Shown: piece by piece, positions 336 through 5,026 of the stretch
Layout of the letters: every line of letters begins with the position of its first letter
How positions within the stretch are numbered: the stretch's first letter is position 1
Origin: Pseudomonadota bacterium
GTDB lineage: Bacteria > Desulfobacterota > Desulfobulbia > Desulfobulbales > Desulfobulbaceae
Direction: 5' to 3'
DNA length: 5,026 bases
NCBI GenBank assembly: GCA_009782165.1
Contig: WQUH01000132.1
Coordinates: 1 to 5,026 of the forward strand
Notes under the pieces: generated by a model
Database searches by the model: none
Seen by the model: the letters and a program-made list of their open reading frames with translations, nothing else
Told to the model about the DNA's origin: nothing
Translations under genes and position numbers: made by a program

Positions 336-559
336 GCCGTCCTCCCTGTATTCCCTGTGTGCGGGTTGAATGCGCCAGGCGTCATCTTGCCGCCGTACCG
401 CAACTATCGGTCTCCCTGGCCCGATCCGATGCCGCGGCGCGGTGCCATTTTTGCAAGACAAACATCGTCAATGCAGGTAAAAGATAACCGAAATCAGCGG
501 GTTCGTCGATGCGCATTGCAACCGGCCGCTGGCAACGCACACTGGCACAGGGAAACACT
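336..559. other. Divergent intergenic region between the tautomerase-ligA pair and galE
   Basis: About 220 nt separate the divergent starts, so promoters for both directions must lie here or in the adjacent sequence. I see no convincing -35/-10 pair. A TTGCAA at 451-456 on the plus strand is followed only at a poor distance by AT-rich sequence (TAAAAGATAA, 478-487). The region also carries open frames on both strands that are extensions of the flanking genes and lack coding character. Confidence 0.4.
340..347 (-). promoter_or_regulatory. Shine-Dalgarno of the tautomerase gene
   Basis: The minus strand reads AGGGAGGA, with four bases (CGGC) before the ATG at 335-333. It fixes the start at the Pro1-encoding ATG rather than the longer in-frame reading. 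Confidence 0.75.
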
Positions 560-1573
560 ATGCATGTCATCGTCACCGGCGGCGCCGGTTATATCGGCAG
601 TCACACCTGCCTGGAACTGCTCGATGCGGGCTATCGGGTTACCGTCATCGACAACCTCTGCAACAGCAGCCGGGAGTCGCTGCGCCGGGTTGAGGAACTG
701 ACCGGCAAGTCCCTTGCCTTTTTCGAGGTCGATCTGCTGGACGAAGACCGGCTGCGCCAGGTGTTCGTCCAAACCCCGGATGCTGCGGCGGTGATCCATT
801 TCGCCGGGCTCAAGGCGGTGGGCGAGTCGGTGGCCAAGCCCTGGCTCTACTACCACAACAATCTGGGCGGCACGCTGAACCTGTGCCGCATCATGGCGGA
901 ACGACAGGTGACCAACCTGGTCTTCTCCTCCTCCGCCACCGTGTACGGCGACCCGGCCTCGGTTCCGATCCGCGAGGATTTTCCGCTCTCCTGCACCAAT
1001 CCCTATGGCCGCACCAAGCTGATGATCGAAGAGATCCTGCGCGATCTCCAGCATGCCGACCCCCGCTGGAACGTGATTCTCCTGCGGTATTTCAACCCGG
1101 TCGGCGCCCATGTCAGCGGCAGGATCGGCGAAGACCCCAACGGCATTCCCAACAACCTCATGCCCTTTATCGCCCAGGTCGCCGTCGGCAAGCTGCCGGA
1201 GCTTGCGGTCTTCGGCAACGACTATCCCACCCCGGACGGCACCGGGGTGCGCGACTACATCCATGTGGTCGATCTGGCGCTCGGTCACCTGAAGGCCCTG
1301 GCAAAGCTGAACGACCGGCCCGGCATGGCGGTGTACAACCTCGGCACCGGCCGGGGATATTCGGTGCTGGAGATGGTCGCGGCCTTTGGCCGGGCGAGCG
1401 GCAGACCGATCCCCTATCGCATTGCTCCCCGCCGGCCCGGCGACATCGCCCAATGCTATGCCGACCCGTCCCTGGCCGGACGCGAGTTGGGCTGGCAGGC
1501 CCGACTCGGCATCGAAGCGATGTGCGCCGACGGCTGGCGCTGGCAGGCGGGCAATCCCGATGGCTACCGATAG
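560..1573 (+). CDS. galE: UDP-glucose 4-epimerase GalE (337 aa)
   Basis: GalE interconverts UDP-glucose and UDP-galactose with tightly bound NAD+, supplying precursors for surface polysaccharides and serving galactose metabolism. It is an extended short-chain dehydrogenase. The nucleotide-binding motif GGAGYIGS is at residues 7-14, the catalytic Ser124 lies within SSSATVYG, and the YxxxK pair is Tyr149/Lys153 (NPYGRTK). All three fall at the same numbers as in the 338-aa E. coli enzyme, so the protein is full length. The start at 560 is chosen because the glycine-rich strand begins right after it and AGGGA (549-553) lies 6 nt upstream; a longer in-frame start at 509 would add 17 residues with no family match. 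Residue 299 is Cys ([11 protein letters not shown]), where E. coli has Tyr299 and human GALE has Cys307. This suggests it may also accept the UDP-GlcNAc/UDP-GalNAc pair. An AT-rich cassette island begins 25 nt after its stop. Confidence 0.96.
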
Positions 1574-1598
1574 CGCCGGGCCTGCCGCGTAAACTCAA

Positions 1599-1605
1599 GT
1601 TAGGC
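1599..1605 (+). mobile_element. Integron core recombination site GTTAGGC at the left end of cassette 1
   Basis: GTTAGGC fits the GTTRRRY core consensus cut by integron integrases between G and TT. It is identical to the R' box of the complete attC at 2020-2026. Base composition changes sharply here, from GC-rich galE to AT-rich cassette DNA. The sequence just before it (TAAACTCAA) resembles the 3' arm of many attC sites (TTAACTCAAGC) but lacks two bases, so it may be a decayed attC end or a chance secondary site. Confidence 0.7.
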
Positions 1606-2020
1606 TAAAGAAGTGAAGTTTCCAATCTTATAGGCATCGGAGAAAATATGCTTGATGCTGCAAAGCTCCTCATCCGCAAGGACGGTTCTCAAATTGACCT
1701 TGATAGGCCGCCAATCGGATTTGATCCGCGCGACCTAATCAGAGAGTTGTTGGCGTATGGTGAAATTGAGGCAGCAGATAAGCTGCTGCAACTTGATCGA
1801 AAAGCTATAGTTGCAATTGGCGTTCTTGCCATGAGGTACTATTCTGCACCAGATCGCCCAATTCTAGACAAGGCTATTTGTTTGGGTATTGTAGAGTTTC
1901 TAGAAGAGAAACCTCGTCCGCTCAAGAGAAAACGCCGTGTTTATCCTAAAAATTGAGATTAAATTTTCCTAACATTGCATTCAACCCGGACGCGCTAAAG
2001 CGCGCCGGTTAATTCAGGCG
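1600..2020 (+). mobile_element. Integron gene cassette 1 (421 bp)
   Basis: The unit runs from the TTAGGC after one core cut to the G before the next, and contains a single ORF followed 10 nt later by its attC. One ORF in the same direction as its attC, with very short untranslated flanks, is the classic cassette layout. It is clearly more AT-rich than galE and cmoA on either side. No intI integrase or attI is in the window, so this is either part of a larger array or an integrase-less attC cluster (CALIN). Confidence 0.82.
1648..1956 (+). CDS. Hypothetical protein encoded by cassette 1 (102 aa)
   Basis: I do not recognise this protein. It is soluble-looking and probably mostly helical, with no signal peptide or membrane segment. 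The N-terminal half is acidic to neutral (FDPRDLIRELLAYGEIEAAD, residues 25-44). Residues 50-85 form a likely helical core including MRYYSAPDRPILDKAICLG. The C-terminus is strongly basic (RPLKRKRRVYPKN, residues 90-102), which could bind nucleic acid or a partner; that is inference from charge only. GGAG (1639-1642) lies 5 nt before the ATG. Codon use is AT-rich, unlike galE and cmoA. Cassette proteins are often orphans, and some are toxins, antitoxins or antiphage factors, but nothing here singles out one of those roles. Confidence 0.78.
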   Translation: MLDAAKLLIRKDGSQIDLDRPPIGFDPRDLIRELLAYGEIEAADKLLQLDRKAIVAIGVLAMRYYSAPDRPILDKAICLGIVEFLEEKPRPLKRKRRVYPKN

Positions 2021-2026
2021 TTAGGC
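1967..2026 (+). mobile_element. Complete attC recombination site (60 bp)
   Basis: R'' is TCCTAAC (1967-1973) and R' is GTTAGGC (2020-2026), with six of seven bases complementary. The inner arms pair in order: 1979-1981 with 2011-2013, 1983-1984 with 2009-2010, 1986-1989 with 2005-2008, and 1991-1995 with 2000-2004, closed by a TAAA loop. Unpaired C1982 and A1990 correspond on the bottom strand to the extrahelical G and T that integron integrases use to choose the strand (G20'' and T12'' in attC-aadA7). C1985 is an additional unpaired base. The unpaired central spacers are ATTGC and TCAGGC. Size and fold are those of a short class-1-integron-like attC. Confidence 0.93.
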
Positions 2027-2037
2027 TTTTCAATCGG

Positions 2038-2044
2038 AAGGAGG
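2038..2044 (+). promoter_or_regulatory. Shine-Dalgarno of the cassette 2 gene
   Basis: AAGGAGG, fully complementary to the 16S rRNA 3' end, lies 6 nt before the GTG at 2051. It starts just 11 nt after the attC R' box and supports a GTG start for an otherwise unremarkable small ORF. Confidence 0.8.
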
Positions 2045-2050
2045 GGGGCA

Positions 2051-2284
2051 GTGAAACAGATAGGATGGCTTTTCTCTTATTCAGTCTTAACCTTATGTTC
2101 CTGCTATAACATATATCATGCCATAGCAGAAGGAACAGTGAAAGGTTTATCGAAATCCTTAAGTCGCATGACAGTTATTTCACGTACGACTTCTCCTTTT
2201 GATTTTTATCTAAATATAGCCTGTTATTGTGCTTTTCTTGTCATAGGAATTATAGGGGTAGCTAGAATTTTGCGAAGAAAGTAA
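2051..2284 (+). CDS. Small two-helix membrane protein encoded by cassette 2 (77 aa)
   Basis: I do not recognise a named family. Two hydrophobic segments are clear: residues 4-24 (IGWLFSYSVLTLCSCYNIYHA) and residues 52-73, which end in VIGIIGVARIL before RRK. They are joined by a basic and polar loop (KGLSKSLSRMTVISRTTSP, residues 31-49). It is probably an inner-membrane hairpin; the C-terminal RRK suggests a cytoplasmic C-terminus and hence a cytoplasmic N-terminus. The start is GTG at 2051, with AAGGAGG upstream. Codon use is AT-rich like cassette 1 and unlike cmoA. Many cassettes encode small membrane proteins of unknown role, so no function is assigned. The TAA stop overlaps an ATG (TAATG, 2282-2286) that opens only an 11-codon frame. 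Confidence 0.75.
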   Translation: MKQIGWLFSYSVLTLCSCYNIYHAIAEGTVKGLSKSLSRMTVISRTTSPFDFYLNIACYCAFLVIGIIGVARILRRK

Positions 2285-2354
2285 TGTCTATTCCTGATGA
2301 TCTTGAACCAATTGCTTAATATTCCTCAAGCGTTGCGCGCTCAGTTGGCCACGC

Positions 2355-2376
2355 GCCTAACCTTGCGTTCCAGCCC
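2355..2376 (+). mobile_element. Probable 5' half of a second attC, truncated at cmoA
   Basis: R''-like GCCTAAC (2355-2361), spacer CTTGC (2362-2366) and an L''-like GTTCCAGCCC (2367-2376) follow the order and spacing of the intact attC. The first 23 positions match it at 16, and the L'' box has the unpaired-C position (GTT-C-CAG). GCCTAAC is the exact complement of the GTTAGGC core. I find no pairing 3' arm or GTTRRRY box in the next 120 nt, which are cmoA coding sequence. It could be chance, but position and spacing favour a truncated site. Confidence 0.5.
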
Positions 2377-3108
2377 ATGACTGTCCCCGAAGATACCCTG
2401 TACGCCTCCGGCGCGGTCGCGGAGGATTTTGCCTTCAACGACCGGGTCGCGGATGTGTTCGACGACATGCTCAGCCGCTCGGTCCCCTACTACCGCACGG
2501 TCATCGACGGCATGGCGCAGTTGCTGGCCGGTCATCTCGCGGATGGCGCCACGGTCTGCGACCTGGGCTGCTCGACCGGCACCACCCTGCTCGAACTGGC
2601 CCGGCGGCTTGCCAACCTGCATCTGCGCTATGTCGGCATCGACAATGCGCCGGCCATGCTCGCCAAGGCGCGCCGCAAAAGCGCCATGTTCAGCAAAAGC
2701 GAGGTGCTGCGCTTCATCGAGGCCGACATCACCTCCTGCCCGCTGCCCCAGGCGGATGCCATCATCTGCAACTACACCCTCCAGTTTCTCCGGCCCCTGA
2801 CCCGGCAGCCCTTTGTCCGGCGCGTCTACGAGGCGCTGCCCGCGGGCGGCATGTTTTTTCTCGGCGAAAAGACCATCACCCCAGCCAGCCGGCTCAACCG
2901 CGACTTCATCGACATCTACCACGCATTTAAAAAGCAGCAGGGATACTCGGAACTGGAGATCGCGGCCAAACGGGAGGCCCTGGAAAATGTCCTGATTCCC
3001 TTTTCGCTGGAGGAAAATATCGCGCTGCTGCGGGAGGCCGGATTCGCGGAAGTGGAACTTTTTTTCCGCTGGTTCAACTTTGTGGCCATCGTGGCCCTCA
3101 AACGCTGA
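2377..3108 (+). CDS. cmoA: Carboxy-S-adenosyl-L-methionine synthase CmoA (243 aa)
   Basis: CmoA converts S-adenosylmethionine and prephenate to carboxy-SAM and phenylpyruvate, the donor step for the wobble modification cmo5U34. It is a class I Rossmann methyltransferase-fold protein. Ligand residues fall at the same numbers as in E. coli CmoA: Tyr39 (RSVPYY), Gly64-Ser66 in DLGCSTG, Asp89-Asn90 (GIDNAPAM), Asp117-Ile118, Asn132 (CNYTLQF) and Arg199 (AAKREALENV). Arg199 binds the extra carboxylate, which separates CmoA from ordinary methyltransferases. Length is close to the 247 aa of E. coli. MTVPEDTLY matches the family N-terminus, so ATG 2377 is the likely start. No Shine-Dalgarno precedes it: the bases before it are the half-attC, so the original leader may have been lost. 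cmoB follows after 3 nt. Confidence 0.95.
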   Translation: MTVPEDTLYASGAVAEDFAFNDRVADVFDDMLSRSVPYYRTVIDGMAQLLAGHLADGATVCDLGCSTGTTLLELARRLANLHLRYVGIDNAPAMLAKARRKSAMFSKSEVLRFIEADITSCPLPQADAIICNYTLQFLRPLTRQPFVRRVYEALPAGGMFFLGEKTITPASRLNRDFIDIYHAFKKQQGYSELEIAAKREALENVLIPFSLEENIALLREAGFAEVELFFRWFNFVAIVALKR

Positions 3109-3111
3109 TCC

Positions 3112-4065
3112 ATGGACCTGATCGCCGCATTTCCCCAGGCCGATGCCGACCGGCTCAGGTCGGCGCTGGCCGAAAAATTCGCCTGGGTCAATCAGGAAAA
3201 AAAGGGATTCCTCCGCTACCGCAACCTGCTCCGGGAGGTGCGGCATCTCCGGGCGTCGTCGTGCGATTTTTCCGGCGATGTGGTCCGCATCGGCGCCGAG
3301 GCCGACCTGAGCCCGGATCAACGGCCGCAGGTGTACCGGGTGCTGCGCGGCTTCATGCCCTGGCGCAAGGGGCCTTTTTCCGTCTTCGGCATCGACATCG
3401 ACGCCGAGTGGCGCAGCGAGCGGAAATGGAACCGGATCGTCCCCGAACTGCCCGACCTGACGGGCAAGACCGTGGCCGACATCGGCTGCAACAACGGCTA
3501 CTACATGTTCCGGATGGCGCATCACCGGCCCGCCCTGGTCCTCGGATTCGAGCCCTATGTCCAGCACTATTACGCCTTCCGCCTGCTCAACGGTTTTGCC
3601 GGTCAGCCGCATCTGCAGGTGGAGCTGCTGGGCATCGAGCATCTTGCGCTTTTTCCCGACAGCTTCGATGTTATTTTTTGTCTGGGGATCCTGTACCATC
3701 GGCCTTCGCCGCTGGAGGCCCTGCGCGATCTGTATGCCGCGCTCAAACCGGGCGGCTGGCTGATCGTCGAGTCCCAGGCCATCCCCGGCCAGGCGCCGGT
3801 GGCGCTCTTTCCCGGCGCCACCTACGCCAAGGTGCCCGGCACCTGGTTTGTGCCCACGGGCGCCTGTCTGTACAATTGGCTCGCCCGCACCGGTTTTCGG
3901 GAGATCCGCCTGTTCTGCGAACATGCCATGAGCAGCGCCGAACAGCGGCGGACCGCCTGGATGGATTTTGAATCCTACGAAGATTTCATTGACAAGGACA
4001 ATCACGAGCTTACTGTTGAGGGGTATCCGGCGCCTTGGCGAGTACTGCTCAAGGCTGCCAAGTAA
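3112..4065 (+). CDS. cmoB: tRNA U34 carboxymethyltransferase CmoB (317 aa)
   Basis: CmoB transfers the carboxymethyl group of carboxy-SAM to 5-hydroxyuridine-34 of tRNA, giving cmo5U34 and widening wobble reading of four-codon boxes. An N-terminal helical region precedes a SAM-type Rossmann domain. Conserved residues sit at a constant offset of five from E. coli CmoB (323 aa): Lys86 in PWRKGPFS, Trp100, Lys105 in WRSERKWNR, Gly125 in DIGCNNGY, Tyr195 in LGILYHRPSPLE, and Arg310 in VEGYPAPWR. The lysine, tyrosine and arginine contact the donor's extra carboxylate or its surroundings. E. coli Met196 is Leu191 here, a mild change. It starts 3 nt after the cmoA stop without a clear ribosome site, which suggests translational coupling. 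The long minus-strand open frame across cmoAB is a GC-bias shadow. Confidence 0.95.
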   Translation: MDLIAAFPQADADRLRSALAEKFAWVNQEKKGFLRYRNLLREVRHLRASSCDFSGDVVRIGAEADLSPDQRPQVYRVLRGFMPWRKGPFSVFGIDIDAEWRSERKWNRIVPELPDLTGKTVADIGCNNGYYMFRMAHHRPALVLGFEPYVQHYYAFRLLNGFAGQPHLQVELLGIEHLALFPDSFDVIFCLGILYHRPSPLEALRDLYAALKPGGWLIVESQAIPGQAPVALFPGATYAKVPGTWFVPTGACLYNWLARTGFREIRLFCEHAMSSAEQRRTAWMDFESYEDFIDKDNHELTVEGYPAPWRVLLKAAK

Positions 4066-4154
4066 CCGCAACAACTGGAATTATTCTGACTGTCACCTGC
4101 GCGGGACCAGAGGCCGCCGGTCGCGTTCGCACCCCACAACGAGGAAAAACAAAC

Positions 4155-4706
4155 ATGAATGCACAAGACTGTACGCTGTACCATGGAGGGCTGAAGGGGG
4201 CGGAAACCCTCTTTGGCGAGAATGCCGAAAAATACGGGATCCAGGAGGTGATTTTCACCTTTGCGGGCCACCGCCTCAACCGTGACCGCAACCCTGTGAT
4301 TTTGAACGAGGAGGAGTTGCAACGGGGCGACATCAGCATGGAGTTGGCGTCGCGCATGATGAACCGCACCTATTACGAGACCGAAAAGATCCGCCGGGTG
4401 CTCCAGACCATCTTCCACATGGTCAACAAAGGACACCAGGTCTTTGTGGTTGGCACCATTCTGGAGGACAATTCGGTGAAGGGCGGCACCGGCTGGGCGG
4501 TGGAACTGGCCAAGCTGTTCAACCGGCCGCTGCACGTCTACGACCAGCAGCGCCGCCAGTGGTTCACCTGGAAGGAAGGGGCCTGGCAGGAAGACAGCCC
4601 CAGGATTTGCTACAACACCTTTGTCGGCTCGGGCACCCGTTATCTCAGCGACGACGGGATTGCCGCCATCAACCAACTCTTTGCCGACAGCTTCGCCAGG
4701 CAGTGA
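4155..4706 (+). CDS. Uncharacterised protein, possibly SLOG/DprA-like Rossmann fold (183 aa)
   Basis: I do not recognise a named gene. The N-terminus LYHGGLKGAETLFGENAEKYG (residues 8-28) resembles the GGAxGAD opening of SLOG/DprA-like nucleotide-binding folds. A strand and Gly-rich loop follow (QVFVVGTI 95-102, VKGGTGWAVELAKLF 108-122), then a strand HVYDQQRRQWFTW (127-139), and last TFVGSGTRYLSDDGIAAIN (155-173), which resembles the GIGTR element in phage-borne relatives. SLOG proteins bind or cleave nucleotides and some act in conflict systems; a role here is inference. The start at 4155 is chosen over an in-frame ATG at 4035 that lies inside cmoB: GAGGA (4141-4145) sits 9 nt upstream and the family-like sequence begins just after. 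It lies 89 nt behind cmoB with no visible terminator, so co-transcription is possible. Confidence 0.8.
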   Translation: MNAQDCTLYHGGLKGAETLFGENAEKYGIQEVIFTFAGHRLNRDRNPVILNEEELQRGDISMELASRMMNRTYYETEKIRRVLQTIFHMVNKGHQVFVVGTILEDNSVKGGTGWAVELAKLFNRPLHVYDQQRRQWFTWKEGAWQEDSPRICYNTFVGSGTRYLSDDGIAAINQLFADSFARQ

Positions 4707-4864: not shown

Positions 4865-4924
4865 CGCCCTGCCGGGCGTGTGACTTTTTTTGCTCGCCCA
4901 AAAAACGATCACCAAAAAAAGGGC
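4865..4924. repeat. Homopolymer-rich segment with small hairpins
   Basis: A 5-bp hairpin (CGCCC 4865-4869, GGGCG 4874-4878) is followed six bases later by seven T's (4885-4891). Then come CGCCC, six A's, seven A's and GGGCG (4895-4924), which can pair across the A-rich stretch. It could act as a weak terminator in either direction, but the spacing to the T-run is poor. I favour a dispersed-repeat origin. Confidence 0.4.
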
Positions 4925-4976
4925 GCCCCGCGTGAGCGGCGGCTTCGCCGTACCTTCGCCGCTGGCCGTGCGGCGG

Positions 4977-5020
4977 GCGGCGCGTAAACTCGTGCTGCGC
5001 ACTCGGACAGTACGCGCCGC
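4977..5020. repeat. Perfect 10-bp inverted repeat flanking 24 nt
   Basis: GCGGCGCGTA (4977-4986) and TACGCGCCGC (5011-5020) are exact reverse complements. The 24-nt centre holds a small GTGC/GCAC hairpin (4992-5002). The element is probably complete or nearly so within the window and ends 6 nt before the right edge. Confidence 0.7.
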
Positions 5021-5026
5021 TGATCC

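What the first reader, a model, noticed from the sequence alone, without database searches (positions are those of the whole stretch)
1599..2376. Two integron gene cassettes without an integrase between galE and cmoA
An AT-rich island between two GC-rich housekeeping genes shows the full cassette grammar: GTTAGGC core, one ORF, a complete attC, a second ORF and a partial attC, all in one direction. No intI or attI is visible, so this is either the tail of an array or a stand-alone attC cluster (CALIN) placed by off-target integration. Both cargo genes are unknown.
Basis: partly seen in the sequence, partly recalled or inferred. Interest (0 to 1): 0.78.

Follow-up and report, generated by a model that had tools for sequence, protein, structure and literature searches.

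The report
Stray integron cassettes inside galE–cmoA operon
Two small foreign genes, one of them followed by a complete integron recombination site, sit between two housekeeping genes of a Desulfobulbus bacterium where its four closest relatives have only a short gap; they were likely dropped there by an integron enzyme acting away from its usual site, an event type already known, seen here with a clear empty-site comparison.

Summary
An AT-rich island (1599-2376) separates galE from cmoA: GTTAGGC, ORF1 (1648-1956), a complete attC (1967-2026), ORF2 (2051-2284) and 22 nt of a second attC that stops at the cmoA start codon. An attC covariance model built without any site of this genome scores 1967-2026 at 57.4 bits (E 6.5e-12). 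The window is a whole contig of a 57%-complete draft Desulfobulbus genome. In the four closest relatives, D. elongatus DSM 2908 among them, the galE-cmoA gap is 58-70 bp against 803 here. ORF1 occurs in 1 of 257 genomes of the order (this one) but has 55 other homologues, the two named ones in Pseudoxanthomonas and Iodobacter; none was found for ORF2. Three more contigs carry cassette-like sites, one pair before mreD, where the four relatives have only 86-89 bp. No integron integrase was found; the one candidate is XerD. Best reading: off-target (attG-type) insertion, then loss of the last attC's 3' half, with cassettes predicted to be read from the galE promoter. A new member of a known kind. 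Co-orientation with host genes is not a rule in relatives (9:8 and 12:8).

The parts
557..1573 (+). galE, UDP-glucose 4-epimerase, host gene on the 5' side
   Evidence: TIGR01179 447.1 bits over cut-off 262.3; 87.9-91.4% identical in the four closest relatives
1574..1598 (+). left flank, 25 nt between galE stop and the first core site; presumed host DNA, perhaps a remnant of a dispersed palindromic repeat
   Evidence: resembles the repeat at 4900-5026 as well as or better than all but 1-2 of 1000 shuffles; decamer GCGTAAACTC 11 times in the genome, 0 in the reversed control; alternatives not excluded
1599..1605 (+). GTTAGGC core site: left junction of the cassette island, inferred crossover between G1599 and T1600
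   Evidence: exact match; the crossover position follows from established IntI chemistry (G^TT), not tested here
1648..1956 (+). ORF1, 102 aa, cargo of cassette 1, function unknown; likely ribosome binding site (GGAGAA before ATG) read from the sequence
   Evidence: 55 homologues besides itself, most 57-78% identical; no Pfam or PADLOC match and no NCBIfam match over cut-off; confident mostly helical model, mean pLDDT 93.7, no PDB or viral fold match at E<=0.001
1967..2026 (+). complete attC of cassette 1
   Evidence: 57.4 bits, E 6.5e-12 genome-wide; hairpin z -3.96
2051..2284 (+). ORF2, 77 aa, cargo of cassette 2; two hydrophobic stretches read by eye suggest a small membrane protein; likely ribosome binding site (GGAGG) before GTG
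   Evidence: only itself found in a search of 5.8 billion proteins that needs shared 5-residue words; no Pfam match, no NCBIfam match over cut-off
2355..2376 (+). partial attC of cassette 2: R''-L'' half only, ending directly at the cmoA start codon
   Evidence: 4 and 5 mismatches of 22 to other attC starts, 0 of 500 shuffles; by local alignment three of four motifs 0-2 of 1000 shuffles as good, the fourth 23 of 1000
2377..3108 (+). cmoA, carboxy-SAM synthase, host gene on the 3' side
   Evidence: TIGR00740 241.1 bits over cut-off 193.3; 85.6-88.1% identical in the four closest relatives
3112..4065 (+). cmoB, host gene that follows cmoA
   Evidence: TIGR00452 363.7 bits over cut-off 275

Best explanation
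The stretch 1599-2376 holds two integron gene cassettes set between galE and cmoA of a Desulfobulbus chromosome, likely inserted by an integron integrase acting at a non-integron (attG-type, secondary) site and predicted to be transcribed from the galE promoter. Shown: the complete attC, the second partial attC, the foreign composition of both ORFs, and the short gap at this place in the four closest relatives. Inferred: the integrase joined the cassette end (TTAGGC) to a host G at 1599; a later deletion removed the 3' half of the last attC together with the native cmoA leader, which would fix the insert in place; with no terminator-like site found between 1500 and 2450 and all genes in one direction, the cassettes would be read as part of a galE-ORF1-ORF2-cmoA-cmoB unit. 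The same genome has cassette-like sites on three other contigs, one pair upstream of mreD, so cassettes appear to have been scattered, either by an integrase now lost or missing from the incomplete assembly, or by one that acted in trans.
For: attC by covariance model, fold and homology. Partial attC. Gap of 58-70 bp between galE and cmoA in D. elongatus DSM 2908 and three Desulfobulbus MAGs against 803 bp here. ORF1 in 1 of 257 genomes of the order, that one being this genome, yet 55 further homologues in the protein collection, two of them with an organism name shown, Pseudoxanthomonas spadix and Iodobacter arcticus (Gamma- and Betaproteobacteria as recalled). Further sites in the same genome: C174:45-101 57.1 bits and 380-440 31.8 bits, C200 24.0 bits, C154 21.1 bits. 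The C174 cargo has 233 homologues, named ones in Dyella, Alteromonas, Shewanella and others among the 120 listed, and the mreC-mreD spacer is 86-89 bp without a GTTAGGC core in the same four relatives (mreC named by TIGR00219 in one of the four). The only recombinase found is XerD: TIGR02225 over cut-off, TIGR02249 146.3 against 265. Insertion at secondary sites is established: PMC2426708 and PMC10127599 (passages read); attG sites of Loot et al. 2024 seen only as cited in PMC12901181 and PMC12444791.
Against: The last attC is truncated, so the right junction of an integrase reaction is not visible and the insertion could have come about otherwise. The left flank 1574-1598 does not align convincingly with the relatives' spacer (shuffles as good: 96, 985, 35 and 884 of 1000 for the four relatives), so the exact crossover cannot be fixed; that spacer is poorly conserved among the relatives themselves. 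No integrase in the genome, though it is 57% complete. The model R1 was built from attC sites partly chosen by similarity to this one, and two of the other three contigs have only weak hits (E 0.01 and 0.06). The genomic neighbourhood of ORF1 homologues could not be read, so their cassette status elsewhere is untested. Transcription is not tested; a promoter-like site inside ORF1 (1865-1892, 9 of 12, within the shuffled number) could serve ORF2.
Confidence: 0.8

Rival explanations
1. It is the tail of a larger integron array whose integrase end was lost by deletion, so that galE and cmoA came to flank the last two cassettes.
For: Degraded arrays are a proposed origin of CALINs (PMC9024848, passages); several relatives carry integron integrases (30 of 55 genomes over cut-off); the genome taken to be D. 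elongatus (G011) has an integrase-like C-terminal fragment near a contig end.
Against: galE and cmoA are neighbours at 58-70 bp in the four closest relatives, so an array would have to have entered exactly this gap and then lost its front; the 25 nt before the core leave no room for an integrase or attI; other cassette-like sites of the genome sit at other loci.
Confidence: 0.1
2. A piece of an array entered by homology-free (illegitimate) joining of incoming DNA, broken inside attC hairpins, with no integrase involved.
For: The right end stops inside an attC; the left flank has a weak likeness to the inner (L') part of an attC (27, 39, 27 and 226 of 1000 shuffles as good for four motifs).
Against: The left end coincides with a perfect GTTAGGC core, the normal cassette end; joining the two ends as one attC folds no better than with a shuffled flank (553 of 1000 as good).
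Confidence: 0.08
3. The island is not cassettes but an ordinary strain-specific insertion that happens to contain attC-like hairpins.
For: One complete site only; both cargo proteins of unknown function.
Against: 57.4 bits with a model free of this genome's sites, a second partial site, a core site at the start, and matching sites with cassette-like ORFs elsewhere in the genome.
Confidence: 0.02

Closest known systems
CALIN (cluster of attC sites lacking an integron integrase), as defined in IntegronFinder
   Same: attC sites and cassette ORFs in one direction without a neighbouring integrase
   Different: one complete and one truncated attC, below the two-site reporting default of IntegronFinder 2.0; both host flanks are housekeeping genes with a short-gap counterpart in sister genomes
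Cassette insertion at attG / secondary sites (Loot et al. 2024, seen only as cited; Francia et al. 1993 and Recchia et al., as cited in PMC2426708)
   Same: cassettes outside an integron, left junction at a G|TT, a single complete recombination site
   Different: the passages seen speak of experiments in Escherichia coli and of IntI1; here a natural insertion with a truncated end in a sulfate reducer (host physiology recalled)
CALINs away from the integron locus in Xanthomonas (PMC12444791, passages read)
   Same: cassettes away from the integron platform, some beside named chromosomal genes
   Different: in Xanthomonas the positions are described as relatively conserved across species; here the site is empty in the four closest relatives

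Membership tests
Integron gene cassette | an attC site: R and L boxes pairing into an imperfect hairpin with extrahelical bases | tested here: met
   1967-2026 scores 57.4 bits, E 6.5e-12, with a model free of this genome's sites; fold z -3.96
Integron gene cassette | a short ORF in the orientation of the attC, between core site and attC | tested here: met
   ORF1 starts 42 nt after the core that ends at 1605 and ends 10 nt before the attC; ORF2 starts 24 nt after the attC
Integron gene cassette | no promoter of its own | tested here: inconclusive
   consensus scan only: 2 promoter-like sites against 1.1 in shuffles, none on the + strand before ORF1, one inside ORF1
Integron gene cassette | can be excised or inserted by an integron integrase | not testable with these tools
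   needs a recombination assay
CALIN | no integron integrase near the attC sites | tested here: met
   none in the 5026-base contig; genome-wide best TIGR02249 match is XerD, under cut-off; contig is short and genome 57% complete
CALIN | at least two attC sites (default of IntegronFinder 2.0) | tested here: inconclusive
   one complete site and one 22-nt partial site
Complete integron | intI gene with adjacent attI | tested here: not met
   25 nt between galE and the first core; no intI in the genome held
attG-type off-target insertion | host site without the cassettes in close relatives | tested here: met
   gap 58-70 bp in four of four closest relatives, 803 bp here
attG-type off-target insertion | both junctions at G|TT of a secondary site | tested here: inconclusive
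   left junction fits; right junction lost with the 3' half of the last attC
attG-type off-target insertion | match to the published attG consensus | not tested
   the paper is not held

The most novel reading that the evidence does not exclude
In this Desulfobulbus lineage housekeeping operons, not an integron, serve as the expression platform for cassettes: an integrase now lost, or acting in trans, has dropped cassettes at four or more chromosomal places, each facing the same way as the host gene next door (galE-cmoAB, mreD-mrdA-rodA, a pyridine-nucleotide-disulfide oxidoreductase gene, a histidine kinase), and end truncation then locks them into the operon as permanent new genes.
Probability: 0.25. 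Interest if true: 0.55.

Novelty: new member of a known kind. Interest (0 to 1): 0.36.

Why it matters
Cassette insertion outside integrons is, in the passages I could read, supported mainly by experiments. This locus, and the mreD locus of the same genome, give natural cases with the short-gap site visible in four close relatives, so the junctions, the loss of the terminal attC and the expression of the cargo from a housekeeping operon can each be tested. ORF1 belongs to a family of 56 found members with a confident predicted fold and no known function, a useful target in its own right.

Full report
What the window is. galE (557-1573), cmoA (2377-3108) and cmoB (3112-4065) are identified over curated cut-offs. 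The genomes G002, G005, G011 and G022 are listed as same genus and have the same galE-cmoA spacers as named Desulfobulbus records, which places the window in Desulfobulbus; I take G011 to be D. elongatus DSM 2908 and the other three to be Desulfobulbus MAGs on that ground. Their CmoA is 86-88% identical.

The observation. GTTAGGC occurs three times in the window counting both strands, 0.41 expected. For the attC I built a covariance model (R1) from 11 sites outside this genome: five from plasmids and six from two viral-collection contigs, one of which holds about a dozen attC sites. These were partly chosen for likeness to the site in question, which should be kept in mind; none comes from the genome searched. 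R1 finds 1967-2026 at 57.4 bits, E 6.5e-12 over the genome. It folds better than all of 200 shuffles. The second site is a 22-nt R''-L'' half at 2355-2376 that ends at the start codon of cmoA. The full model does not score it (2.4 bits).

Insertion. In the four closest relatives the galE stop and cmoA start are 58, 64, 66 and 70 bp apart; in the window, 803. Of 29 relatives' loci examined with 1.5 kb flanks, 13 have galE next to cmoA, with spacers from under 20 to about 250 bp and one of about 700 bp, whose content was not annotated (stop codon counted in). In the other 16 galE was not found in the stretch; two named records have the pair about 4 kb apart. ORF1 was found in 1 of 257 genomes of the order, this one. 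It has 55 other homologues, most on short contigs, with Pseudoxanthomonas spadix and Iodobacter arcticus named. For ORF2 only itself was found; that search needs shared 5-residue words, so distant relatives may be missed. Both ORFs fall below the threshold of a codon-usage gene caller trained on host genes (an earlier, faulty version called ORF1).

Other sites in the genome. R1 finds C174:45-101 (57.1 bits), C174:380-440 (31.8), C200:9916-9973 (24.0, E 0.01) and C154:1546-1601 (21.1, E 0.06), and a sixth match at 16 bits that I disregard. On C174 an 81-aa ORF lies between the two sites, followed by an MreD-like protein (TIGR03426 24.0 bits, under the cut-off of 34.85), MrdA and RodA (over cut-off). 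Its ORF has 233 homologues. In the four closest relatives mreD follows its upstream gene, MreC by TIGR00219 in the one tested, after 86-89 bp without a GTTAGGC core. The C154 site follows a 256-aa ORF behind a pyridine-nucleotide-disulfide oxidoreductase gene; the C200 site lies at the junction of two small ORFs next to a histidine kinase. The last two hits are weak and are reported as likely, not sure.

Integrase. TIGR02249 finds one protein in the genome, under the cut-off, which is XerD by TIGR02225. Of 55 genomes including this one, 30 have a protein over the cut-off; none of the four closest relatives does, and G011 has only a C-terminal piece. With R1, 29 of 55 genomes, this one included, have a hit at E<=0.05; G002, G005 and G022 have none, G011 has two (run with stricter filters that lose weak matches). 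So the activity seems to come and go in the clade, and a 57%-complete genome cannot show that it is absent here.

Mechanism. The left end is a normal cassette end (G1599|TTAGGC), 25 nt after galE. [quoted passage not shown] PMC10127599 (passages) gives the minimal motif GNT, extended to GTTRRRY. PMC12901181 and PMC12444791 (passages) cite Loot et al. 2024 for attG sites, a paper I could not read; that it reports expression near host promoters is recalled. The right end has lost the 3' half of its attC and the host spacer; I infer a deletion after insertion. No terminator-like site was found between 1500 and 2450, and the 2 promoter-like sites are no excess over shuffles (1.1), though one lies inside ORF1 and could serve ORF2. 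All genes face one way, so read-through from galE is the simplest expression route, untested.

Cargo. ORF1 gives a confident helical model (mean pLDDT 93.7, pTM 0.87, 53 sequences) without a convincing structural match. Its function is unknown. ORF2 looks like a small membrane protein by eye. Neither matches a defence family.

Against a general rule. I asked whether scattered cassettes tend to be co-oriented with neighbouring host genes. In this genome the scored neighbours are, on 5 of 5 sides. Among 29 places in relatives the counts are 9:8 (5' side) and 12:8 (3' side), two-sided p 1.0 and 0.50. The bold operon-landing reading is therefore only a possibility.

Verdict. It is a natural off-target cassette insertion of a known kind, well supported by short-gap sites in sister genomes, of moderate interest. 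In searches on attG, CALIN and Desulfobulbus integrons no listed paper was, by its title and the start of its abstract, about such a case in Desulfobulbus; only open-licence papers are in that library.

Noticed in passing
window 4900-5026; genome contigs C67, C75, C77, C83, C111, C145, C175, C230, C275: A dispersed GC-rich palindromic repeat (core GGCGCGTAAACTC...TACGCGCC in the copies read); its decamer GCGTAAACTC occurs 11 times in 1.47 Mb, reversed control 0, several copies near contig ends, so it may break the assembly.
   Followed up: partly
window 1574-1598: The 25 nt between galE and the first cassette resemble that repeat (1-2 of 1000 shuffles as good), but the right flank does not, so its meaning is open.
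   Followed up: partly
L005 (genome contig C174) 45-440: A second cassette island of the same genome, with one complete and one degenerate attC around an 81-aa ORF of a family with 233 homologues, directly upstream of mreD-mrdA-rodA.
   Followed up: partly
G008:C1 (loci L137, L186, L187, L195, L203, L204): A single-contig 3.1 Mb same-genus genome has nine attC hits at six places and only partial integron-integrase matches under cut-off, some with stops: a possible decayed integron with scattered cassettes.
   Followed up: no
G014:C1, G001:C1 (loci L120, L121, L123, L124): Proteins over the integron-integrase cut-off in open frames of 430-495 residues, with no convincing attC array in the adjoining 20 kb; the one model hit there is weak (G014:C1:283420, 26.9 bits).
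   Followed up: no
L200 (G011:C71) 1631-1680: A strong attC-like site (65.1 bits, model positions 6-55 only) in the genome taken to be D. elongatus, which has no complete integron integrase.
   Followed up: no
window 4155-4706: Conserved ORF after cmoB of unknown function, 74-95% identical in the relatives' loci where it is seen, with a weak likeness to a SLOG-type family under cut-off.
   Followed up: no
window 2341-4074 (-): A 577-aa antisense ORF across cmoA-cmoB, probably an effect of high GC; it misled my first gene caller.
   Followed up: yes
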